From: Mogibacterium sp.
GTDB taxonomy: Bacteria > Bacillota > Clostridia > Peptostreptococcales > Anaerovoracaceae
NCBI GenBank assembly: GCA_017433975.1
Contig: JAFRGD010000001.1
Coordinates: forward strand, 30,558-94,557
Length of the DNA stretch: 64,000 nt
Reading direction: 5' to 3'
The translations under genes were made by a program, and so were the position numbers. The notes under the pieces are model-generated. The model saw nothing but the letters and a program-made list of their open reading frames with translations, was not told the origin of the DNA and ran no database searches. Position 1 is the stretch's first letter. Each line of letters begins with the position of its first letter. This document shows, in pieces, positions 3,810 through 26,772 of this stretch.

Positions 3810-4736
3810 ATGATTACAAAAAAAGTCATCGTCGGCGGCGGGACGGAGTTCCCGCTGAACGGACAGCTGGTGCTGCCGGACGACCTGACGGAGCGGGTGC
3901 CGGCGGTCGTGTTCGTGCACGGCTCGGGTCCGAGCAACATGGACGAGCAGATTTACAGCCTGACGCCTTTTAAGGACCTCGCGGAGGGGCTCGCGGAGCG
4001 GGGAATCGCTTCGATCCGCTATGATAAGCGGACGTACGCCTACGCCCGCAAGGTCGCGAAACTCGCCGGCGTCGTCACGGTCAAGGAAGAAACGATTGAG
4101 GACGCGATCCGGGCGGCCGACCTCGCGCGAACGATTCCGGAGATCGACCCGGAGCGGATCTTTATCGTCGGCCACAGCATGGGCGCGATGCTCGCGCCGC
4201 GCATCGATGCAGAGGGCGGCAACTTCCGCGGGCTGGTCCTCATGGCGGGGACCCCACTGAGGTTAGAGAACATCGTCATCCGCCAGCTCAAACAGGCGAG
4301 CGGCGAAGGCAGCGGCATCATGAAAATGGTCGTCAAGCTGGAGGACAAGATCTTCAGCAAAAAGTTCGACGGCCTCTACGACATGCCGGACGACGAGGCC
4401 CGGCGGAAGAAATTCTTCGGCGGCACGTCGCTCTACTACTTCAAGGAGATGGGCCGGAAGACCGCCGCGGAATACCTGATAGAGTCCGACAAGCCGGTCC
4501 TGATCATGCAGGGCGGCATGGACTTCCAGGTCCTCAAGGACGTGGACTTCGCGGCTTTCCAGAAGCTCCTCGCGGACCGTCCGAACGTCGAGTACCGCCT
4601 CTACGACGACCTGAACCACCTCTTCGTCAAAGGCGTCTTCAACAGCATCATGCTGGCCGCCCGCGAGTACAAGAAGAAGCAACACATCGGCCCGGAGGTC
4701 ATCGACGACATCGCCGCGTTCGTGAAATCGAATTAA
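3810..4736 (+). CDS. Alpha/beta hydrolase of the dienelactone-hydrolase/esterase type
   Basis: I chose the ATG at 3810 because AAAGGAGG is placed directly upstream; an earlier in-frame ATG at 3780 has no such site. The 308-residue product carries HGSGP (37-41) and the nucleophile elbow GHSMG (Ser123). Near the C-terminus there is an acidic residue in MQGGMDFQ and the expected His in LYDDLNHLFVK. This pattern is that of the alpha/beta hydrolases with an N-terminal beta-sandwich-like extension seen next to peptidases. It is unrelated in detail to the preceding hydrolase, so the pair is not a recent duplication. Substrate unknown. Confidence 0.82.
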   Translation: MITKKVIVGGGTEFPLNGQLVLPDDLTERVPAVVFVHGSGPSNMDEQIYSLTPFKDLAEGLAERGIASIRYDKRTYAYARKVAKLAGVVTVKEETIEDAIRAADLARTIPEIDPERIFIVGHSMGAMLAPRIDAEGGNFRGLVLMAGTPLRLENIVIRQLKQASGEGSGIMKMVVKLEDKIFSKKFDGLYDMPDDEARRKKFFGGTSLYYFKEMGRKTAAEYLIESDKPVLIMQGGMDFQVLKDVDFAAFQKLLADRPNVEYRLYDDLNHLFVKGVFNSIMLAAREYKKKQHIGPEVIDDIAAFVKSN

Positions 4737-4763
4737 TTGGGTTAGGGGATTGAGGAGGACGAG

Positions 4764-5540
4764 ATGAATACGTATTTGATTGAAGAGATGACGTGGCCGG
4801 AGATCAAGGCGGCCCTTGAGGCCGGCGTGGACACAATCATCATTTACGCTGCGTCGATTGAGCAGCACGGGCCGCAGCTCGCGGAGCTGACGGACACCCA
4901 GCTCGGGTACCAGGGCGGCATCGACCTGGCGAAGCGGCTCGGGAACGCGCTGGTCGCGCCGGTCATCCGGCCGGGCCTGTCCAAGCACCACCTGAGCCTG
5001 CCGGGTAGCCTGACCCTGCGGCCGGAGGTCTTCCGCGGCGTCGTGGAGGATTACGTCGCGTGCTACGTGACGCACGGCTTTAAGAAGATCATCCTGACGT
5101 CGTCGCACGGCGGGAACTTCCAGGCGATTGCGGACATCGCGAAGACGGAGGCTGCGAAATACCCGGACGTCTGCATCGTGTCCGGGCTCTCGCTCGCGGA
5201 GCTGACGCCGGCGCTGGAGGAGCTCGAGCGGATCGAAGGACTTGAACCTGGCGTCTGCGGCGGCCACGCCTGCGACTGGGAGACATCCGTCATGCTGCAC
5301 TTCACGCCGCAGCACGTCCGCATGGACCAGGCGGAGCGCGGCTTCGTCGGAACGCCGACGCCGGAAGTGCTGGAGCGGTTCTTCACGGATGGCGTCGTTG
5401 CGGTCAGCGAGATCGGCGTCATGGGCGACCCGTCCCACGCGGACGGCGAGCGCGGCGGCCGTTATTTCAAGTATCTACAGGACATCCAGGAGCGCGTCGT
5501 GAGAGCGCACATCGCGGACTGGGAGCAGGCGCACCAATAA
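4764..5540 (+). CDS. Creatininase-family metal-dependent amidohydrolase
   Basis: The 258-residue protein shows the creatininase/MftE fold signatures: SIEQHGPQL with metal-binding Glu33 and His35, Asp44, HHLSLPGSL at 75-83, SSHGGN with His115, and GGHACDWETS with Glu173. These are the binuclear metal ligands of the family. Members hydrolyse cyclic or linear amides (creatinine, formamides, mycofactocin leader peptides). The substrate here cannot be assigned, and no mycofactocin genes are nearby. It follows two hydrolases within 30-70 bases, suggesting a small catabolic operon. Ribosome site GAGGA lies before the ATG. Confidence 0.85.
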   Translation: MNTYLIEEMTWPEIKAALEAGVDTIIIYAASIEQHGPQLAELTDTQLGYQGGIDLAKRLGNALVAPVIRPGLSKHHLSLPGSLTLRPEVFRGVVEDYVACYVTHGFKKIILTSSHGGNFQAIADIAKTEAAKYPDVCIVSGLSLAELTPALEELERIEGLEPGVCGGHACDWETSVMLHFTPQHVRMDQAERGFVGTPTPEVLERFFTDGVVAVSEIGVMGDPSHADGERGGRYFKYLQDIQERVVRAHIADWEQAHQ

Positions 5541-5568
5541 GGTCGCGGCTGCGTTTTGGCCATTGCGC

Positions 5569-5630
5569 CAACCAAGAATTGCCATATATGGAAATTTTTG
5601 GTTGACAACGTTGCCGTTTACGGGTATAAT
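5569..5630 (+). promoter_or_regulatory. Consensus sigma-A promoter overlapped by a 36-bp palindromic operator
   Basis: TTGACA at 5602-5607 and TATAAT at 5625-5630 are separated by exactly 17 bases, a perfect vegetative promoter. A near-perfect dyad spans 5569-5604: arms beginning CAACCAAGAATT and ending AATTTTTGGTTG around the central palindrome CCATATATGG. Its right arm runs into the -35 box, so a bound dimer would block RNA polymerase. The downstream gene encodes an HTH protein, which makes autorepression the simplest reading. Confidence 0.75.
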
Positions 5631-5651
5631 AAAGGCGAAAGGAGGAGCGAA

Positions 5652-11254: not shown

Positions 11255-11450
11255 ATCGCGGGAGATTTGTTTGAATACGCCAAAGGCGGGAGGGATAGAC
11301 GGTATCTATCGCTTCCGCCTTTTGTATTGCGATTATGAATTCACAAAAGAATTTGTTTCAAAAGGGCAAGATTTCGTTGATATGCGAAAAAAGCCGTCGA
11401 TGATATCTTTGAAAGAGAGTAAATCCATACACCACTTTAAGGAGGGTAAC

Positions 11451-11993
11451 ATGAATATTAACGCAAAATCGATCGATCTGGCAAAGGTTCAGGCAGACGC
11501 TGAGGAGTCGTTCCGCAAGGGCTTCTTCTGCTGCGAGGCCGCCATGGAGACCATCATCAACAGCTTCGAACTGGACGTTCCGCGCGAAGTCATCAGCATG
11601 GCGTCCGGCATGGCGGTCGGCGTCGGCAAGTCCGGCTGCATCTGCGGCGCGCTGAACGGCGCCATCCTCGCCATCGGCATGTTCTTCGGTAGATCCGAGC
11701 AGAAGGGCCCGGCGGATCCGCAGGTCGTCAAGTGCCTTGCCCTGACCAAGGAGATGCACGACTGGTTCAAGGATAACAACACCAAGAAGATTACCTGCTG
11801 CCGCGTCCTGACCAGAGAATTCGACATGAGCAAGGGCGGACATAAGGCCCAGTGCATCTACTACACCGGCATCTGCACCGCCAAGGCTGCGGAGATTATC
11901 GCACGCGAGCTCGGCATCCCGACCACCGGCGAGATTACGGTCCTGCCTTACGACGAGTACATCAAGACGAGAATCGCTCCGCTGGAAGCGTAG
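11451..11993 (+). CDS. C_GCAxxG_C_C family redox-type protein
   Basis: The chosen ATG at 11451 has AAGGAGGG directly upstream; the longer open frame from 11271 has no ribosome site. The 180-residue protein shows the cysteine pattern of the C_GCAxxG_C_C family: FFCCEA (Cys27-Cys28), GCICGALNG (Cys63 and Cys65), then CLALTKEMHDWF and KITCCRVLT, and a final CIYYTGICTAKAAE. Such proteins are thought to be redox-active or metal-binding and often sit next to membrane transporters in anaerobes. Here a TehA-like transporter follows after 21 bases. The family's biochemical function is unknown to me. Confidence 0.85.
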   Translation: MNINAKSIDLAKVQADAEESFRKGFFCCEAAMETIINSFELDVPREVISMASGMAVGVGKSGCICGALNGAILAIGMFFGRSEQKGPADPQVVKCLALTKEMHDWFKDNNTKKITCCRVLTREFDMSKGGHKAQCIYYTGICTAKAAEIIARELGIPTTGEITVLPYDEYIKTRIAPLEA

Positions 11994-12014
11994 TACTTCA
12001 AAGGAGAGAGAACA

Positions 12015-12929
12015 ATGATTAAGAAAATGCCTATTCCGATCTGCGGAGTGATCCTGGGCCTCTTCGGCCTCGGGAATCTCCTCCAGTCGTATTCCGCGGG
12101 CGTCCGCATGGCGTGCGGTATTGTGGCGACGGTGCTCATGGTACTGTTCCTGGTCAGCGTGTTTGCCGACTTCGGGAAGTTCAAGGAAAACATGAAGAAC
12201 CCGATCATGGCGAGCGTCTTCTGCACGTTCCCGATGGCGTTGATGCTTTTCAGCACGTACTTCAAGCCGTGGTTCGGCCCGGCGTCCAAGATCATCTGGA
12301 TCGTCGCGATCGCGTTGCACGTCTTCATGATCCTGTACTTCACAAAGACGTTCGTCCTCAAGCCGTCGCTCAAGACGGTTCACGCGAGCTGGTACATCGT
12401 ATACGTCGGAATCGCGATGGCCGCGATGACCGCGCCGGCGTATGAGGCGACCGGCTTCGGCATCCTGACGTTCTGGTTCGGCCTTGTGTCGCTGCTGGTC
12501 CTGCTGGTCTTCGTCACGATGAGATACGCCAAACTGCCGGTACCGGATCCGGCAAAGCCGCTGATGTGCATTTACGCGGCGCCTGCCAGCCTCTGCATCG
12601 CGGGATACATCCAGTCCGCCGCCGCCAAGAACCTGACGTTTCTGACCGTCCTGTGGGTGCTTGCGACCGTCCTGTTCGTCTTCGCCTGCATCAAGTTCGT
12701 CCAGTTCCTTAAGTTCCCGTTCTTCCCGAGCTACGCGGCTTACACGGTCCCGTTCGTCATCAGCGCGATCGCTTCCAAGCAGCTGATGGCCTGCTCCGCT
12801 GCGATGGAGCAGCCGATGGCGTTCCTGAAACCGATCGTACTAATCGAGACGATCATCGCTACGTGCACGACGCTTTACGCGCTGGTCAGATACCTCATGT
12901 TCCTGTTTGGAACCGAGAAGAAAGCATAG
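12015..12929 (+). CDS. TehA/SLAC1-like (TDT family) anion transporter
   Basis: This 304-residue protein is almost entirely hydrophobic, with about ten predicted transmembrane helices and the opening MPIPICGVILGLFGLGNL typical of tellurite-resistance/dicarboxylate (TDT) and SLAC1 proteins. Short charged loops alternate with helices throughout, and there is no soluble domain. AAAGGAGAG precedes the ATG. It is co-oriented with the upstream cysteine-rich protein at 21-base spacing and ends near a strong terminator, so the two form a likely bicistron. The substrate may be a small mono- or dicarboxylate or sulfite; the sequence does not tell. Confidence 0.78.
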   Translation: MIKKMPIPICGVILGLFGLGNLLQSYSAGVRMACGIVATVLMVLFLVSVFADFGKFKENMKNPIMASVFCTFPMALMLFSTYFKPWFGPASKIIWIVAIALHVFMILYFTKTFVLKPSLKTVHASWYIVYVGIAMAAMTAPAYEATGFGILTFWFGLVSLLVLLVFVTMRYAKLPVPDPAKPLMCIYAAPASLCIAGYIQSAAAKNLTFLTVLWVLATVLFVFACIKFVQFLKFPFFPSYAAYTVPFVISAIASKQLMACSAAMEQPMAFLKPIVLIETIIATCTTLYALVRYLMFLFGTEKKA

Positions 12930-21422: not shown

Positions 21423-22007
21423 TCAGACGCGGACGCGGAACAGGCCGTGACGGTTGCAGTAGGCGAGGACTTCGCCGTGGCCGCGGCGGAAGAACCGGCA
21501 CTCCGCGTTGCCCTCCGGGTACAGTTTGACGGTCTCGAGCCGGTCGCCGGTGCGATAGATGAAGAAGCTGACATAGTGATCCTTTGTCATCGGGTGGTCC
21601 ATCGTGACGTAGTATTCGTCTTCGACTTTTTCGACGCGGATGCGGTGGCTGTCGTCAGGCTCCTCTGCCTCGAGCGCCGGCAGGGCGACGCCGCAGCAGC
21701 TCAGCGCCACGTCACCCGTGGACTGGATCACATTGCCGCAGATCGGGCAGACGTAAAGCCGCGCTTTGCGCATGTTGGACGCCACGTTCTGATTGATGAT
21801 CTGCTCGCCTGCGAACAGCTCGCCCACGGACAGGCCCAGCGCGTCCGCGATCGGTTCGACCAGGGTGATATCCGGCAGGCCGCGGCCCGTTTCCCACTTG
21901 GACACGGCCTTGTCGCTGACGCCGAGCCGCTCCGCGAGCTCCGCCTGCGTCATTTTATTCTTCTCGCGAAGCGCCTTGATCACTTCGCCTTTAATGTATC
22001 GGTTCAT
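21423..22007 (-). CDS. XRE-type HTH fused to a complete desulfoferrodoxin (superoxide reductase)
   Basis: The ATG at 22005-22007 has GGAAGGAA upstream. Residues 8-62 are an XRE HTH (MTQAELAERLGVSDKAVSKWETGRGLPD). Residues 84-110 match the desulforedoxin domain (Cys87, Cys90, Cys104, Cys105), the FeCys4 centre I. Residues 119-194 match the superoxide reductase centre II, with His121, His138, His144, Cys184 and His187 (HRIRVEK, DHPMTKDH, YCNRHGLF), i.e. four His and one Cys. All iron ligands are present, so this is either a superoxide reductase with a DNA-binding tail or an iron-based redox-sensing repressor. It stands alone with its own terminator. Confidence 0.88.
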   Translation of the reverse strand: MNRYIKGEVIKALREKNKMTQAELAERLGVSDKAVSKWETGRGLPDITLVEPIADALGLSVGELFAGEQIINQNVASNMRKARLYVCPICGNVIQSTGDVALSCCGVALPALEAEEPDDSHRIRVEKVEDEYYVTMDHPMTKDHYVSFFIYRTGDRLETVKLYPEGNAECRFFRRGHGEVLAYCNRHGLFRVRV

Positions 22008-22075
22008 CGTTCCTTCCTCCTCGTTCCCAAGGATACCACGGGACCGGCCGGCGTGTCCACCTACGCTCCGTAGAG

Positions 22076-22110
22076 AAAACCGGCCCACCGCCGGAGGGCG
22101 GCAGGGCCGG
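22076..22110 (-). terminator. Intrinsic terminator after the lipoprotein gene
   Basis: On the minus strand CCGGCCC and GGGCCGG enclose an inner GCCGCC/GGCGG stem and are followed by TTTTCTCT. It lies 28 bases beyond the stop of the lipoprotein gene. Confidence 0.7.
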
Positions 22111-22865: not shown

Positions 22866-24353
22866 CTATGCGGCGATCCGCGCGTAGCGTTCGCTGCCGA
22901 TGACGTCCATCATGACGCGGTACGGGTCGATGTTGCCGCTCGCGACCATGGAGAACAGCCGCGGCGTGCAGCCGCTGACCAGGGCGACGCCCTGCTCGTT
23001 CATGGTGACCGGCTGCTGCCGGTTGCGGCTCTGGACGTTCCAGAACACGACGTTCGGCAGCCGGTAGCCGTGCGCGGCGTACTTCCTCTTCGCGTTTTCG
23101 AAGTTTGTCGCGCCGGCGTTGCGGACGCAGGCGTTGAACTCCATGTCGGAGATCAGGTACAGGGTCGCCGGCAGCTCTTCCTGCGGGATGCGGTTCCGAA
23201 CCGCCGCGCGCAGGATGAGGTCGAACACCGCCTCGATGTTGGTGTCCGCGATTTCGCTGAACGACGCGACGTACCGGAGCCGGTCGGCAAAGGTCTCACC
23301 CTTGATTTCAATTAGCTTCGCATCGCGCGAAAACTCGATGAAATGGTTGTGGAACAGACCCTTGTTCCGCTCCGCGAAGTACAGTCCCAGGGACAGTGCG
23401 ACGCTCGCCGGGCGCGGGCTGGTCGAGCAGTACATGGACCCCGAAGTGTCCACGACCGCCAGGGCGTTCTCCGTCCCGCCGAAGTCCGGCAGGGAGGCCC
23501 AGGTCGCGTTCAGGACGCGCTTTTCCGCCTCGGTGATGTCCCGCATGGCGGAGTGCCGGGAGAACCAGTAACCCGTGAGGTACGGGTCCACCAGCTCGTA
23601 AGGCATGAGGGTCCGCGCGTGGAGCTTCGCCTCACCCGTGGTCACCTTGTTGATGAACGCGCGGTAGCGCTCACCGTCGTTCCGCAGGAACGCAGCGCGG
23701 TACTTGAACATCGCCTTGGACGGCTGCTTCGCGTAGTCAAAGGTGTAATCCTTTTCGCGCAGGTTGTTCTCGATGATCCGGATCTTGGCGCGGAGCGCAA
23801 CGACGGCCTTGCGGTAGTCGCGGTCCGACAGCTTCAGGCTGCGGGCGATCTTCCTGGCCATTGCGACCGTGTCGGCGTTGCTGGCGTTGACGGACGGCAG
23901 CCACTTCGCGAGCAGGGAAACACTTTCCCCTGCGGTGAGGGCGGTCAGATCCGCCAGAAGCTGCTTCGCGACATACGCGAGCATTTCCGGCTCGCACGGC
24001 GTTCCCATCAGCGCGAGCAGGTCGTCATAGCGGCCGTATTCACCGAAATATTCGATGTTCTTCCGTACGGATTCTGGTTCCTGCGCCGCCAGGTAGGTCA
24101 TGACGGTCCGGAACACCCGGCGCTCGCCAAGACCGCCGCGGACGTCCCGCGCGAAGAAGAGAATCTTCATCGCGACGTCCGGGTCCTCGGTGTACGCGCG
24201 GATGAACCGGTCCAGGATCTCCTGCTCCGGCGCCTGCCGCAGCGCGCCGACGGTCGCGAACAGGTCGAGGCAGTCGGAATACGTGGTGACGCGGGTCGCG
24301 GCACCGTTTTCGGTCAAAGTCATATTCGATTCGTTCTTGATTGCGTTCAACAT
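22866..24353 (-). CDS. Ro60-like TROVE / DUF2828-type RNA-binding protein with vWA domain
   Basis: The 495-residue protein has an N-terminal HEAT-repeat-like ring domain (about 20-290) with the motif LFFARDVRGGLGERRVFR, typical of TROVE/DUF2828 proteins. A von Willebrand A domain follows (about 295-490) with the MIDAS motif DTSGS at 302-306. Ro60 and its bacterial relatives (Rsr) form a ring that binds misfolded or damaged RNAs through the hole and Y RNAs on the rim. Immediately upstream on the same strand lie Y-RNA-like and tRNA-like genes, then an HTH gene and rtcB. Start ATG 24351-24353 with AGGAAGGAAAG upstream. Confidence 0.88.
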   Translation of the reverse strand: MLNAIKNESNMTLTENGAATRVTTYSDCLDLFATVGALRQAPEQEILDRFIRAYTEDPDVAMKILFFARDVRGGLGERRVFRTVMTYLAAQEPESVRKNIEYFGEYGRYDDLLALMGTPCEPEMLAYVAKQLLADLTALTAGESVSLLAKWLPSVNASNADTVAMARKIARSLKLSDRDYRKAVVALRAKIRIIENNLREKDYTFDYAKQPSKAMFKYRAAFLRNDGERYRAFINKVTTGEAKLHARTLMPYELVDPYLTGYWFSRHSAMRDITEAEKRVLNATWASLPDFGGTENALAVVDTSGSMYCSTSPRPASVALSLGLYFAERNKGLFHNHFIEFSRDAKLIEIKGETFADRLRYVASFSEIADTNIEAVFDLILRAAVRNRIPQEELPATLYLISDMEFNACVRNAGATNFENAKRKYAAHGYRLPNVVFWNVQSRNRQQPVTMNEQGVALVSGCTPRLFSMVASGNIDPYRVMMDVIGSERYARIAA

Positions 24354-24368
24354 TGTTCTTTCCTTCCT

Positions 24369-24482
24369 AAAAAAACAAGATGCCGGGTTGCATGCGGGAG
24401 TCGAACCCGCGACACACTGAGGGATGATCAGTTACTCTTACCATCTGAGCTAATGCTGCTGTGAGGTTGCTGTGGGCATCTT
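24369..24482 (-). ncRNA. Y-RNA-like RNA: terminal 8-bp helix enclosing a tRNA-like domain
   Basis: Read on the minus strand, AAGATGCC (24475-24482) pairs perfectly with GGCATCTT (24377-24384). After the 5' strand comes the shared motif ACAGCAACC (24465-24473). The interior (24390-24456) folds as a tRNA: short acceptor GCAT/ATGC, D arm GCTC/GAGT with GG in the loop, anticodon arm ACTGA/TCAGT with a loop lacking U33, and a perfect T arm GCGGG/CCCGC with loop TTCGACT. The 3' helix strand runs into G plus seven T (24369-24375), so the terminal stem can double as a terminator just before the TROVE start. This is the architecture of bacterial Y RNAs (YrlA). Confidence 0.75.
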
Positions 24483-24490
24483 TCATTTAC

Positions 24491-24550
24491 AAAGTGCTCT
24501 TTTGGCCATACGGTTATGAGTCGTATCCATGCGGTTGCTGTAAGCACTTT
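24491..24550 (-). ncRNA. Short Y-RNA-like element carrying a methionine anticodon-arm hairpin
   Basis: AAAGTGCT (24543-24550) pairs perfectly with AGCACTTT (24491-24498). The motif ACAGCAACC (24533-24541) follows the 5' strand, as in the neighbouring element. Inside is the hairpin ATACG/CGTAT (24508-24526), whose loop contains CTCATAA, the usual anticodon loop of methionine tRNA (anticodon CAU). No T arm is present. It lies 4 bases after the Asp-like tRNA and 8 bases before the larger Y-like RNA. It may be processed from a long precursor. Confidence 0.6.
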
Positions 24551-24554
24551 TGGG

Positions 24555-24629
24555 TGGCGGTCCGTACGGGAGTTGAACCCGTGTCTTCCGGTCGACAGCC
24601 GGATATAATCGCCGTTATACGAACGAACC
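24555..24629 (-). tRNA. tRNA-like gene, Asp anticodon GUC, encoded CCA
   Basis: On the minus strand the 7-bp acceptor GGTTCGT/ACGGACC has one G-U pair. The anticodon stem TCCGG/CCGGA holds loop CTGTCGA (U33, anticodon GTC). The T arm ACGGG/CCCGT with loop TTCAACT is perfect. The discriminator is G, as in tRNA-Asp, followed by CCA. The D stem has only three pairs with a U-U mismatch and an eight-base loop. It could be a functional tRNA-Asp, but the setting and defects suggest a mimic. Confidence 0.72.
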
Positions 24630-24633
24630 ATGG

Positions 24634-24709
24634 TGGTGATCTCCGTGGGACTCGAACCCGACATTATCGGGATGAAAACCCGATGTCCTTGCCTTTAGAC
24701 GAGGAGACC
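24634..24709 (-). tRNA. tRNA-like gene, Glu anticodon UUC, encoded CCA
   Basis: Acceptor GGTCTCC/GGAGATC, D arm GTCT/GGAC, anticodon stem TCGGG/CCCGA with loop TTTTCAT (anticodon TTC) and encoded ACCA are all present. The T stem TCGGG/CCCAC has only three of five pairs, which would destabilise the elbow of an ordinary tRNA. Four bases separate it from the Asp-like gene and three from the Met-like gene. This tight packing implies processing from a single precursor. Confidence 0.72.
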
Positions 24710-24712
24710 GTG

Positions 24713-24787
24713 TGGTTGCGGAGGAGGGATCCGAACCCCCGACCGATTGGGTATGAGCCAAGCGAGCTGCCGCTGCTCCACTCCGCA
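24713..24787 (-). tRNA. tRNA-like gene, Met anticodon CAU, initiator-like, encoded CCA
   Basis: Acceptor TGCGGAG/CTCCGCA is a perfect 7 bp, followed by ACCA. The body GTGGAGCAGCGGCAGCTCG resembles an initiator tRNA D arm. The anticodon loop CTCATAC gives CAT with U33. The stem CTTGG/CCAAT lacks the three G-C pairs that define initiators and has a C-U mismatch. T-loop position 58 is G instead of the near-invariant A. It therefore looks like a degenerate copy of tRNA-fMet rather than a working initiator. Confidence 0.72.
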
Positions 24788-24851
24788 ACAATGGCTGAGG
24801 GAGGCGGACCTCCCTGCGCCGGTTGCCCGCGTACGGTTGCTGTCATTACTG
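24788..24851 (-). ncRNA. Third stem-closed RNA with the ACAGCAACC motif
   Basis: Starting in the stop codon of the HTH gene, CAGTAATG (24844-24851) can pair with CATTGTTG (24786-24793) through eight pairs, two of them G-U. The last two pairs overlap the 5' end of the Met-like tRNA. ACAGCAACC (24835-24843) follows the 5' strand, and a perfect 7-bp hairpin AGGGAGG/CCTCCCT (24798-24815, loop TCCG) fills the interior. The same plan as the other two elements suggests a family, but this is the weakest of the three. Confidence 0.45.
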
Positions 24852-25157
24852 TACACGGATATTTGTAATTATGGACTTGTTGAAGATCACTTCACCGTCG
24901 CCGTCGGGGCCATCGATCACGATGATCTGGTCGATGGCGACACCGAGGACGGCCGCAAGGATCACAAGGTTGTCGATGGTTGGCAGACTGTCACCGTTCT
25001 GCCACTTGTAAATCGCCTGCGGACTGGTGAAGCCGAGAATCACCTGCAGGTCTCTTACAGAGAACCCAGCAGCCTCTCTCAGCCGCTTGATGTTCTGTCC
25101 GGTTGCTCTTAAGTCGATGACTGGTACGTGTACCACACCGACGGTTCTTACGTTCAC
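24846..25157 (-). CDS. XRE-family HTH regulator of the RNA-repair island
   Basis: The 103-residue protein starts at GTG (25155-25157) with GGAAAGGAGAG about 9 bases upstream; an ATG four bases earlier is out of frame. Residues about 20-75 form an XRE HTH (NIKRLREAAGFSVRDLQVILGFTSPQAIYKWQNGDSLPTIDNL). The C-terminal segment (DGPDGDGEVIFNKSIITNIRVQ) is unlike the usual domains. It lies 51 bases after rtcB on the same strand and its stop codon overlaps the first small RNA element. It most likely regulates the rtcB operon; the inverted repeat at 26720-26742 is a candidate operator. Confidence 0.85.
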   Translation of the reverse strand: MNVRTVGVVHVPVIDLRATGQNIKRLREAAGFSVRDLQVILGFTSPQAIYKWQNGDSLPTIDNLVILAAVLGVAIDQIIVIDGPDGDGEVIFNKSIITNIRVQ

Positions 25158-25172
25158 CGCATTTACTCTCCT

Positions 25173-25194
25173 TTCCGGCCGTGCCAGGCCGGAA
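25173..25194 (-). repeat. Perfect hairpin between rtcB and the HTH gene
   Basis: TTCCGGCC and GGCCGGAA pair over 8 bases around a 6-base loop. On the minus strand it directly precedes the ribosome site of the HTH gene, so it could protect the mRNA end or tune expression. There is no T run, so it is not a terminator. Confidence 0.65.
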
Positions 25195-25208
25195 GGGTAA
25201 GAACCGGC

Positions 25209-26408
25209 CTAGCTTGCCTTAAAATTGAAAATAGGTTTTAACACTTCAATCACGTCTACCGACGCGTCGATGACATCGATGATGTCCTCGAGAGACTTGT
25301 AAGCCATCGGGGCTTCGTCCAGGGTGGACGGGTTCACGGAAGTCGTGTAAATGCCCTCCATGGCCTTTCTGTAGTCTTCCATTTCGATTGCGTCCCTGGC
25401 CTTGGCCCTGGACATTAGTCTGCCTGCACCGTGCGGCGCGGAGAAGTTCCAGTCCGGATTGCCCTTGCCGAAGGCGAGAACGGACCCGTCCCTCATGTTG
25501 ATCGGGATGAGGACCAGTTCGCCCGCATGCGCGGCGATGGCACCCTTCCGCAAGATCATTTCATCGGTGTCGATGTAATTGTGGACGGTGTGAAACGCGT
25601 CCAGAGCTTCGAGGCCGATGTGAGCGAGGATGACCTCGGCCATCTTTTCGCGGTTCAGCGCCGCGAAGCGCTGGCAGACCTCGACGTCGTGCAGGTAGTC
25701 GTCCAGAAACCTGCCGTACAGGTAGCAGAGGTCGTCCGGAACGGTCGGGTCCTTCTTTTCCCACTTGAGCGCCTTGAGCGCGGCCTGAATCTCGCTCTTT
25801 CTGCCAGCCGCCTTGTATTCCGCGATGATCCGGTCGCGTTGCGCGAGGTATTCCTCCTTGCCGCTGTTCAGATCGATCGCAAGCTGCTGGTAGAACTCAG
25901 CGACCTGCTTGCCGAGGTTCCGCGAGCCGGAGTGGATGATCAGGTATTTGGTCCCGTCCGCGCTGACGTCGATCTCGATGAAGTGGTTGCCGCCGCCGAG
26001 CGTTCCCAGCGACCGGTTCAGCCGCTGCGCGTTCGCGAGCTCTCTGTAGCATCTCAGCTCCGTCAGGTCGAACGGCCACATGACGCGGTCCCAGGTATCG
26101 AACCCGGACGGGATGCTGTGGCACGCCTCGTCCACCTTCGCGAAGTCGATGTCGGCCTTGCCGAGCTTGACCGTGTACATGCCGCAGCCGATGTCCACCC
26201 CGACCACGTTCGGCACCGCCTTATCTATGATCGTCATGGTCGTGCCGATGGTGCAGCCCTTGCCTGCGTGCACGTCCGGCATGATCCGGATCCGGCTGCC
26301 CCTCGTCATCTCGGTGTCGCACATTCTTTGGATCTGCGCGACCGCCTCGTCCTCCACGACTCTGGCAAAGCAGATCGCACTATTCACTTTGCCTTTGATT
26401 TCAAACAT
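25209..26408 (-). CDS. rtcB: RtcB-family RNA ligase
   Basis: The 399-residue enzyme has the RtcB metal and guanylylation residues: PDVHAGKG (Asp45, His47), GVDIGCGM (Asp72, Cys75), GGGNHF (His142), IIHSGSRNLG (His159), TVHNYID (His276) and the guanylate-accepting His326 in APHGAGR. RtcB joins 2',3'-cyclic phosphate and 5'-OH RNA ends, such as those left by anticodon nucleases. It is of the short bacterial RtcB type, about 400 residues. It heads an operon with an HTH gene, small structured RNAs and a Ro60-like protein. No RtcA, archease or RtcR is nearby. GGAGGAAATGAAATG gives ribosome site and start. Confidence 0.95.
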   Translation of the reverse strand: MFEIKGKVNSAICFARVVEDEAVAQIQRMCDTEMTRGSRIRIMPDVHAGKGCTIGTTMTIIDKAVPNVVGVDIGCGMYTVKLGKADIDFAKVDEACHSIPSGFDTWDRVMWPFDLTELRCYRELANAQRLNRSLGTLGGGNHFIEIDVSADGTKYLIIHSGSRNLGKQVAEFYQQLAIDLNSGKEEYLAQRDRIIAEYKAAGRKSEIQAALKALKWEKKDPTVPDDLCYLYGRFLDDYLHDVEVCQRFAALNREKMAEVILAHIGLEALDAFHTVHNYIDTDEMILRKGAIAAHAGELVLIPINMRDGSVLAFGKGNPDWNFSAPHGAGRLMSRAKARDAIEMEDYRKAMEGIYTTSVNPSTLDEAPMAYKSLEDIIDVIDASVDVIEVLKPIFNFKAS

Positions 26409-26431
26409 TTCATTTCCTCCGTAAAAATCAT

Positions 26432-26471
26432 AATAAAAAACCGCTCACCTCTGATCTGAGACAAGCGGTTT
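26432..26471 (-). terminator. Terminator-like hairpin in the leader of the rtcB operon
   Basis: On the minus strand AAACCGCT (26464-26471) pairs with AGCGGTTT (26438-26445), followed by TTT and then ATTAT, only about 25 bases before the rtcB start. The loop contains CAGATCAG, itself symmetrical, which permits an alternative fold. It may end transcription from the upstream gene or act as an attenuator of rtcB. Confidence 0.6.
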
Positions 26472-26772
26472 GAACATTCCATCAAACATGCCCGGCACTA
26501 ACTCACATGCCGCACACTCCCGTTGCCCGTCTCAGCTTTGCACACGAAATCACTCTCCAGGTCAGATCCCTGAAGTTTGTTGATCGTTTCGATTGTCCAA
26601 AGTATAAATCTCGGATACATTTGTTTTGAGAGCCTCTTTCTAATAAGGTTGATTGGCCGGCGCACGCCGACGGCGTCGCCTTTCGCCGATAGTAATATAC
26701 CACACGTGTCAAGCCTTGTAAATTCAACTTGTGGTTGAATTTGAGAAATTTTTAGAGCGGGGTAGGACCGCC
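26472..26772 (-). promoter_or_regulatory. Long leader region of the rtcB operon with inverted repeat
   Basis: No convincing gene occupies these 300 bases. A perfect 9-bp inverted repeat, AAATTCAAC (26720-26728) and GTTGAATTT (26734-26742), lies next to TTGACA on the minus strand (26709-26714), which could belong to the rtcB promoter; no good -10 at the expected distance is evident. A GC-rich potential hairpin (about 26655-26690) follows. The untranslated leader would be near 250 bases, long enough for regulatory folding. Confidence 0.4.

What the first reader, a model, noticed from the sequence alone, without database searches (positions are those of the whole stretch)
22866..26772. RNA-damage island: RtcB ligase, HTH, tRNA-like and Y-RNA-like array, Ro60-like protein in one strand-coherent unit
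Seen: rtcB (25209-26408), XRE gene (24846-25157), about 490 bp holding six structured RNA elements, then a TROVE/vWA protein (22866-24353), all on the minus strand with short gaps. Known: Salmonella couples Rsr (Ro60), Y-like RNAs and RtcBA in an operon induced by damaged tRNA. Inference: this is an independent, compact version in which an XRE protein replaces RtcR and complete tRNA-like genes with encoded CCA are built in, perhaps as bait or reporters for anticodon nucleases whose cleaved products RtcB rejoins and the Ro60 ring captures. I know of no described system with exactly this content.
Basis: partly seen in the sequence, partly recalled or inferred. Interest (0 to 1): 0.95.

Follow-up and report, generated by a model that had tools for sequence, protein, structure and literature searches.

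The report
Self-sensing tRNA reserve and repair island
A bacterium carries, on one strand, genes for an RNA ligase, three transfer RNAs, two Y-RNA-like RNAs and a protein predicted to fold like Ro60, behind a tiny leader gene that spells all 20 amino acids and lies just before a predicted transcription stop signal; ribosomes stalling in that leader for lack of any transfer RNA would likely switch on the repair and replacement kit.

Summary
In detail: RtcB, XRE, three tRNAs with encoded CCA, two Y-RNA-like elements (one enclosing the fourth tRNA call) and a Ro60-fold protein lie on one strand. Two things are added. (1) The Y-like elements belong to a recurrent family (8-bp covarying stem plus NACAGCAA), found within 2.5 kb upstream of 78 of 80 related bacterial Ro60-like genes; no Rfam Y-RNA family matches. 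In relatives such attenuators head XRE-tRNA arrays of divergent tRNAs, and leaders are enriched, as a set, in the amino acids of their own operon's tRNAs (20 pairs, z 6.2, p at most 5e-6; six hold-out pairs, p 0.005). Some arrays also hold ROOL or GOLLD RNA. Best reading: a tRNA-shortage alarm that turns on repair (RtcB), replacement (tRNAs) and RNA surveillance (Ro60-like/Y-like). The window is a reduced copy: its leader is general, not enriched for its own three tRNAs. Regulation and function are inferred; nothing was measured.

The parts
26720..26742 (-). Inverted repeat AAATTCAAC-CACAA-GTTGAATTT, operator-like, containing the ACYACARGTT motif shared by many XRE/attenuator promoters
   Evidence: Sequence; motif plus -10 found upstream of 18 of 34 leaders against 13 of 892 background 330-nt stretches of the same loci, which include leader sites. 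Binding is inferred.
26694..26722 (-). Predicted promoter: -35 TTTACA (26717-26722), 17-nt spacer, -10 TATATT (26694-26699)
   Evidence: Read from sequence; same layout in many relatives
26498..26620 (-). Leader ORF, 40 codons plus stop, all 20 amino acids: MYPRFILWTIETINKLQGSDLESDFVCKAETGNGSVRHVS
   Evidence: chance of 20 of 20 in such a length about 0.4% with assumed amino-acid frequencies; homologous leaders in relatives
26525..26535 (-). Antiterminator strand CTGAGACGGGC inside the leader ORF
   Evidence: 11-bp pairing with the terminator's 5' arm; alternative fold found by ViennaRNA; covariation in 21 aligned attenuators
26435..26470 (-). Predicted intrinsic terminator, hairpin and T-run, between leader ORF and rtcB
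   Evidence: (-17.1 kcal/mol, z -4.7)
25209..26408 (-). rtcB, RNA ligase, 399 aa
   Evidence: PF01139 4.8e-55; DIGCG, GGNHF, HSGSR and PHGAGR stretches align with a solved RtcB; their catalytic role is recalled
24846..25157 (-). XRE-family regulator, 103 aa, of a subfamily that sits directly before tRNA arrays in a number of relatives
   Evidence: PF01381
24713..24787 (-). tRNA-Met(CAT), encoded CCA, 76% identical to the closest other Met tRNA found in this genome
24634..24709 (-). tRNA-Glu(TTC), encoded CCA; no other Glu(TTC) was found in this incomplete assembly
24555..24629 (-). tRNA-Asp(GTC), encoded CCA, 66% identical to the closest other Asp tRNA found in this genome
24490..24550 (-). 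Y-like RNA element 1, 61 nt: AAAGTGCT-TACAGCAA-insert-AGCACTTT-G
24376..24482 (-). Y-like RNA element 2, 107 nt: AAGATGCC-CACAGCAA-tRNA-like insert (24385-24459, the 'Asp(atc)' call)-GGCATCTT-G
   Evidence: in relatives the nearest such element ends a median 37.5 nt before the Ro60-like gene (78 loci)
22866..24353 (-). Ro60-like ring plus vWA protein (Pfam DUF2828 + DUF7788), 495 aa
   Evidence: D302, S304, S306, T371 and D403 (metal-site positions, recalled) invariant in the 43 aligned sequences

Best explanation
This is a one-strand gene island in which a short leader ORF that spells all 20 amino acids and ends just before a predicted transcription terminator precedes genes for an RtcB-type RNA ligase, an XRE-type regulator, three tRNAs, two Y-RNA-like elements and a protein predicted to have the Ro60 fold, and it likely works as a tRNA-shortage alarm: a ribosome that stalls anywhere in the leader would let an antiterminator form and so turn on tRNA repair and replacement. 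Shown by sequence: the parts, their order, the two mutually exclusive RNA folds, covariation of the antiterminator, and in relatives the match, as a set, between leaders' amino acids and the tRNAs of their own operons. Inferred: that transcription really is attenuated, that tRNA cleavage or depletion is the natural signal, that XRE represses the promoter through the ACYACARGTT site, that RtcB rejoins cut tRNAs while the array tRNAs replace lost ones, and that the Ro60-like protein binds the Y-like stem (NACAGCAA side) and handles damaged or misfolded tRNA, with the tRNA-like insert as a gate or mimic.
For: Leader ORF with all 20 amino acids, terminator and competing antiterminator in the window. 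In 21 aligned attenuators the antiterminator helix has 14 cells changed on both sides against 4.3 +- 1.6 in shuffles (0 of 500), and 95.7% of cells paired against 25-59% when slid. Geometry: of 30 leaders, 22 have the antiterminator starting 83-100 nt after the ATG; 26 of 29 with a terminator have 22-36 nt from stop to hairpin. Leader/array matching: 20 pairs without the window, 39.5% of leader residues belong to their own array's amino acids against 29.8% in permuted pairings, z 6.2; at codon level 32.1% against 22.8%, z 7.0, both p <= 5e-6. Hold-out set with a rule noted beforehand: six distinct pairs, p 0.005. All 19 testable amino acids are commoner in leaders whose operon holds their tRNA. 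A further phage leader found by a later scan (L262 4445-4546; its terminator stem has five G-U pairs) matches its array at 0.62, above all 21 other leaders. Array tRNAs are divergent: in L047 63-78% identical to other same-anticodon tRNAs of the same genome (19 comparable of 25). L047's two arrays together carry 19 of the 20 amino acids by ARAGORN (no Ala), sharing only Ser. RtcB lies nearby on the same strand in 64 of 80 related bacterial loci, and Y-like elements precede the Ro60-like gene within 2.5 kb in 78 of 80.
Against: The window's own leader is not enriched for its own three tRNAs (Met, Glu, Asp: 0.13 against 0.14 for other leaders, rank 8 of 15); only its completeness is notable. Glu(TTC) has no other copy in the 83%-complete assembly, so at least that tRNA could be a housekeeping one. 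In 65 of 80 relatives a WYL/WCX-like ORF lies upstream, and only 11 of 80 held the XRE type in the fetched stretch, so the attenuated form is one branch. In one search, 15 XRE units of the new set had no leader by the rule and two had a leader but no tRNA. L095, L091-2, L253 and L273 show little or no own-array enrichment, and L053, L054 and L091-1 only a modest one. Some leaders (L054, parts of L208, L091, L206) were first picked by eye. The strict scan found no antiterminator in L206, L271 and one L208 leader, only an 8-bp off-position match in L254 and another L208 leader, and no terminator for L054. The window leader's GAGG is 12 nt from its ATG, longer than usual. The Ro60-like protein was found in none of 60 family and order relatives, although one other same-family genome (G761, L230) has it with two leader/array units. 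No expression data.
Confidence: 0.66

Rival explanations
1. Amino-acid starvation or general translation-slowdown sensor: the leader reports low aminoacylation or antibiotic-slowed ribosomes rather than cut tRNAs, and the array tRNAs raise translation capacity.
For: Ribosome-mediated attenuators classically sense amino acids (start of the abstract of PMC1183508 in the listing). In Anabaena a silent 26-tRNA operon and rtcB are both repressed by TrcR and respond to some translation-targeting antibiotics (passages of PMC10272220).
Against: The operons encode tRNAs, an RNA ligase and Ro60-like/Y-like parts, not biosynthetic enzymes, and leaders track their operon's tRNAs, which points to the tRNA itself as the limiting item.
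Confidence: 0.2
2. Ordinary Ro60/Y RNA/RtcB RNA-repair operon under XRE control; the leader ORF and terminator are unimportant remnants.
For: RtcB and Ro60-like genes co-occur in 64 of 80 loci, while only 8 of 80 loci hold four or more same-strand tRNAs. Salmonella rsr-yrlBA-rtcBA is regulated by damaged tRNAs (passages of PMC7790460).
Against: Covarying antiterminator, recurrent geometry and leader/array matching would all be coincidences.
Confidence: 0.08
3. The tRNAs and tRNA-like inserts are baits or competitive inhibitors for anticodon nucleases.
For: Array anticodon loops differ from the same-anticodon tRNA elsewhere in the genome in several cases (window Met and Asp; 9 of 19 in L047, counted from the rows). 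Hughes et al. suggest that YrlA's tRNA-like domain may inhibit a nuclease (passage).
Against: The three window tRNAs have encoded CCA, and in relatives arrays supply the very codons whose slow decoding would induce them; altered loops could as well mean resistance to cutting.
Confidence: 0.12
4. A tRNA cargo first evolved by phages for protection against host anticodon nucleases and captured by the bacterium; it has decayed to three tRNAs here.
For: XRE/leader/array units occur in IMG/VR contigs (L253, L254, L262), with GOLLD in L262; ROOL sits inside the bacterial arrays of L047, L048, L196 and L200, and ROOL and GOLLD are described as phage and prophage RNAs (passages of PMC12286853).
Against: The window's scanned neighbours are not phage genes. 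IMG/VR contigs are predictions. No tree was made. This is about origin and does not conflict with the mechanism above.
Confidence: 0.3

Closest known systems
Salmonella rsr-yrlBA-rtcBA operon with RtcR (Hughes et al. 2020, PMC7790460, passages seen)
   Same: RtcB next to a Ro60-type protein and Y RNAs with a tRNA-like domain; linked to tRNA damage.
   Different: Here the Ro60-like protein is DUF2828/DUF7788 by Pfam, no Rfam Y-RNA family matches, tRNA genes are built in, no rtcA or RtcR was found among the six ORFs scanned, and control is by XRE plus a predicted attenuator.
Anabaena trn operon and TrcR regulon (PMC10272220, passages seen)
   Same: A silent set of tRNAs beside the housekeeping ones, turned on by translation stress, with rtcB under the same repressor.
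   Different: RHH repressor acting in trans; no leader peptide in the passages seen; rtcB is a separate target; no Ro60 in the text (0 occurrences).
Ribosome-mediated attenuators (trp, his, ilv type; start of the PMC1183508 abstract and general knowledge)
   Same: Leader ORF, terminator and antiterminator, control codons cognate to what the operon supplies.
   Different: Leaders are poly-specific, up to all 20 amino acids, and the supplied product is the tRNA itself.
ROOL and GOLLD RNAs (PMC12286853, passages seen)
   Same: Large RNAs of unknown function near tRNA islands; found here inside XRE-headed arrays of relatives.
   Different: Not found in the window or in the rest of this incomplete genome (the same search finds ROOL in relatives).

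Membership tests
Ro60 / TROVE | HEAT-like ring plus vWA fold | tested here: met
Ro60 / TROVE | Sequence match to PF05731 | tested here: not met
   Only DUF7788 and DUF2828 reported at E <= 0.001; so filed as Ro60-fold, DUF2828 branch, not as PF05731
Ro60 / TROVE | vWA MIDAS residues | tested here: met
   D302, S304, S306, T371, D403 invariant in 43 sequences; role recalled
Bacterial Y RNA (YrlA and others) | Closing stem bound by the cognate Ro60 protein | not testable with these tools
   Stem exists and own mates pair better than shuffled mates (6.82 against 6.22 +- 0.08 of 8; 68 of 81 rows usable); binding unknown
Bacterial Y RNA (YrlA and others) | Match to a described Rfam Y-RNA family | tested here: not met
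   Only tRNA reaches the cut-off in the window, and at E <= 1 no Y family appears
Bacterial Y RNA (YrlA and others) | tRNA-like module | tested here: met
   Window element 2; T-loop motif in 46 of 235 elements against 2.4 with shuffled inserts; most elements, window element 1 included, lack it
RtcB ligase | PF01139 and active-site motifs | tested here: met
   motif meaning recalled
rsr-yrl-rtcBA operon | RtcA and RtcR present | tested here: not met
   Not among the six ORFs scanned at 21.4-27.3 kb; the rest of the genome was not searched for them
Ribosome-mediated attenuator | Leader ORF with Shine-Dalgarno, then an intrinsic terminator | tested here: met
   Shine-Dalgarno spacing is long
Ribosome-mediated attenuator | Mutually exclusive, conserved antiterminator | tested here: met
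   (21 rows, chosen because the scan had found a pairing)
Ribosome-mediated attenuator | Control codons cognate to the operon's product | tested here: inconclusive
   Met across the family as a set; for the window alone no enrichment (0.13 against 0.14), only all 20 amino acids present
Ribosome-mediated attenuator | Readthrough rises on stalling | not testable with these tools
   Needs a reporter
ROOL-bearing tRNA island | ROOL (RF03087) present | tested here: not met
   Window and own genome negative (assembly 83% complete); present in 5 of 50 genomes of related loci

The most novel reading that the evidence does not exclude
Some bacteria and phages keep a second set of divergent tRNAs in operons whose switches are written in the tRNAs' own language: an operon's leader peptide is composed of the amino acids of the tRNAs it controls, so loss of those tRNAs (for example by anticodon nucleases) releases exactly their replacements, together with RtcB repair, Ro60-like/Y-like surveillance and ROOL or GOLLD RNA cages. 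The window is a condensed form with one 20-amino-acid, all-purpose leader.
Probability: 0.55. Interest if true: 0.95.

Novelty: new variant of a known kind. Interest (0 to 1): 0.88.

Why it matters
It offers a sensor for tRNA loss that needs no protein receptor: the ribosome reads a peptide that samples the tRNA pool. It gives a concrete reason why tRNA arrays, RtcB, Ro60-type proteins, Y-type RNAs and the unexplained ROOL/GOLLD RNAs sit together, and it makes the control and purpose of phage and bacterial tRNA arrays directly testable with a reporter. It also defines an easily searched family of Y-like RNAs in genomes that are mostly Clostridia by their record titles.

Tried and rejected
Rejected: that the four tRNA calls are all ordinary genes (the fourth lies inside a Y-like element). 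Rejected: that the Ro60 label is only a vWA resemblance. Rejected for the window: own-array enrichment of its leader. Tried without yield: Rfam for the leader and Y-like elements; the Ro60-like protein in 60 relatives and as a single query in viral contigs; XRE profile in 398 phylum genomes (4 with a match, the own one included). Chen 2014, Burroughs and Aravind 2016 and Sim 2020 are not held, so the comparison with known Y RNAs rests on Rfam and on memory. Coding constraint of leaders is modest: single-base codon differences 43 synonymous and 61 non-synonymous in type 1, 30 and 31 in type 2. Novelty claim: the ten searches listed no paper whose title or abstract start describes tRNA-array attenuators or DUF2828 with RtcB; three lists were cut (20 of 1,196 seen, 15 of 101, 25 of 39), and subscription papers are largely missing.

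The fixed-rule run on the old set counted one L208 leader twice and missed L054. L262 and L263 are identical in leader and array and were counted once. L268-L270 gave no XRE unit at the script's cut-off.


Full report
What is there. In transcription order: promoter, leader ORF, terminator, rtcB, XRE gene, tRNA-Met, tRNA-Glu, tRNA-Asp, two Y-like RNA elements, Ro60-like gene. The fourth tRNA call, 'Asp(atc)', is the inside of Y-like element 2. Promoter and terminator are predictions.

Relatives. One alignment-based scan of named genomes kept the best 80 of 454 relatives (L047-L126), and one of viral contigs gave 33. In the stretches fetched, of the 80, 64 have rtcB nearby on the same strand, 53 directly 3', 65 an upstream ORF like the C-terminus of a WYL/WCX regulator, 11 the XRE type, and 8 at least four same-strand tRNAs. 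Of the 33 viral, 19 have at least four tRNAs, 1 rtcB, 7 a Y-like element. The regulator label is weak (one protein tested, WCX 20.4 bits, cut-off 23.9).

Y-like elements. Printing the DNA upstream of the Ro60-like genes showed a shared element: an 8-bp stem, then NACAGCAA on the 5' side, a variable insert, the complementary strand and G. A scan gave 303 sense, 6 antisense and 10 shuffled hits in 113 loci. To avoid choosing by complementarity, I anchored the 5' side on the motif and the 3' side on YTTG: 68 of 81 rows (80 loci and the window) could be used; 13 lacked an anchor. Own mates form 6.82 of 8 pairs, shuffled mates 6.22 +- 0.08, at most 6.53 in 2000 shuffles. 78 of 80 bacterial loci have at least one element within 2.5 kb upstream, 235 in all; 46 of 235 carry a T-loop motif against 2.4 expected from shuffled inserts. 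No Rfam Y-RNA family matches in the window. By anatomy these look like Y RNAs of this Ro60 branch, some with a tRNA-like module as in YrlA. Binding is inferred.

tRNA arrays. The closest relatives L047, L048 and L049 have 26, 27 and 28 ARAGORN calls (each including one tRNA-like call next to the Ro60-like gene) in blocks headed by XRE genes of this subfamily; in L047 and L048 rtcB lies between the blocks; Y-like RNAs and the Ro60-like gene come at the end. L047's genome has 65 tRNA hits, 27 of them on the array contig. Array tRNAs are 63-78% identical to other same-anticodon tRNAs of that genome (19 comparable of 25; only fetched loci were compared); the window's Met and Asp are 76% and 66%. 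For Glu(TTC) no other copy was found among the 40 tRNA hits of the window's 83%-complete assembly; several other expected tRNAs are also missing there, so the assembly gap is a likely but unproven reason. Similar XRE-headed arrays were found in further genomes and in viral contigs. ROOL lies inside arrays in L047, L048, L196 and L200, two ROOLs without tRNAs lie in L202, and GOLLD lies in the phage array L262. ROOL was found in 5 of 50 genomes tested, those of L047, L048, L049, L050 and L052, and not in the window's genome.

The attenuator. Between a predicted promoter and rtcB the window has a 40-codon leader ORF, 27 nt, and a strong terminator hairpin (-17.1 kcal/mol, z -4.7). An 11-nt strand within the ORF pairs with the terminator's 5' arm, and the folding program returns that alternative as the minimum-energy fold of the 107-nt stretch, with the terminator in the centroid. 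Equivalent leaders precede rtcB or XRE-tRNA units in relatives. In 21 aligned attenuators the antiterminator shows 14 double-sided changes against 4.3 +- 1.6 in shuffles; the terminator is 100% paired without double changes. The 21 rows, some of them close homologues, had been chosen because the scan found an antiterminator, which inflates percent pairing more than covariation. Of 30 leaders examined, 22 have the antiterminator 83-100 nt from the ATG; L208-a (104 nt) and L262 (77 nt) lie close to that range; three had none, two had a doubtful 8-bp match, and one (L054) had no terminator by the script.

Leaders match their arrays. Examples, leader then array: MLNKSIFAQMMNRFMEQRSFDRNIDQEQSFACKNETGKIDMRRIE with Glu, Arg, Met, Gln, Arg, Phe, Ile (L230-B); MLYYMLNNRISHSTGRSSRRSIRRIICYGKSVVREE with Ser, Ser, Arg, Arg, Ile (L208-a); MLYVMICKQHRHEEKRFWFCQERQFVMPVSEKQIMPVTRGTPMDT with Trp, Gln, Lys, Glu, Glu, Phe, Cys, Gln, Arg, Lys, Arg, His (viral L254; the test used a longer reading from an upstream ATG). 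Tests: 15 first pairs z 5.3; 12 of them, without the window and two cut arrays, z 5.1. I then noted a rule and applied it to new loci: 26 loci gave 24 XRE units, of which 15 had no leader, two a leader without tRNAs, and seven a leader with tRNAs (z 3.0, p 0.0016), six after removing a duplicate (p 0.005). All 20 pairs without the window: z 6.2 by amino acid, 7.0 by codon, p <= 5e-6. All 19 testable amino acids are commoner in a leader when its operon has their tRNA; Trp about 11-fold. Some pairs are homologous (L047-A2 and L253), some arrays are cut by contig ends (L091-2, L095), L095, L273, L091-2 and L253 show little or no effect, and L053, L054 and L091-1 a modest one. A scan of five viral loci afterwards found one more leader in L262, matching its array at 0.62, above each of 21 other leaders.

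Reading for the window. Its leader has all 20 amino acids (chance about 0.4% for such a length) but is not enriched for Met, Glu and Asp. I read it as a general tRNA-pool sensor on a reduced island. Translation to the end would cover the antiterminator strand and let the terminator form; stalling upstream would expose the strand and permit readthrough into rtcB, XRE, the tRNAs, the Y-like RNAs and the Ro60-like gene. The XRE protein probably acts on the ACYACARGTT site at the promoter (18 of 34 leaders against 13 of 892 background stretches), giving a second lock.

Known systems. Salmonella's rsr-yrlBA-rtcBA is regulated by damaged tRNAs through RtcR (PMC7790460, passages). Anabaena's silent 26-tRNA operon and rtcB share the repressor TrcR and respond to some translation inhibitors (PMC10272220, passages). 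ROOL and GOLLD are described as lying near tRNA islands with unknown function (PMC12286853, passages). Jumbo phages are reported with tRNAs, RtcB and sometimes TROVE proteins (PMC7824862, passages). None of the passages seen describes poly-specific leaders or self-matched tRNA operons.

Verdict. Each ingredient is of a known kind; the self-matched wiring is, as far as my searches show, undescribed.

Noticed in passing
L047:4065-4639, L048:3677-4251, L196:4889-5446, L200:5215-5774(-), L202:3841-4393 and 4492-5061: ROOL RNA (RF03087) inside XRE-headed tRNA arrays (four loci) and twice in tandem without tRNAs (L202).
   Followed up: partly
L262:3562-3997: GOLLD RNA inside a phage tRNA array that is split by two matched leaders (4445-4546 and 5534-5635).
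   Followed up: partly
L047:7651-10689 and 11258-12904: Next to the island in L047: a TIR-TPR protein and a second Ro60-like protein with a sub-threshold PF05731 match.
   Followed up: partly
L087:4816-5760 and 65 of 80 loci: A WYL/WCX-like regulator ORF upstream of the Y-like array in most relatives, possibly the usual controller of this Ro60-like/RtcB system.
   Followed up: partly
L260:2099-2300: HEARO RNA (RF02033) near an XRE relative in a viral contig.
   Followed up: no
window 21423-22088(-): A second XRE-type gene (HTH_3) downstream of the island, with a sub-threshold Desulfoferrodox-like C-terminus.
   Followed up: no
L208:7709-8230(-): The leader before a lone tRNA-Tyr has five Tyr but also many Ala codons; no Ala tRNA was called there, so one may be missed.
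   Followed up: no
window 24634-24709(-): The island's Glu(TTC) tRNA is the only one found in the incomplete assembly, so it may be a working copy of the normal pool.
   Followed up: partly
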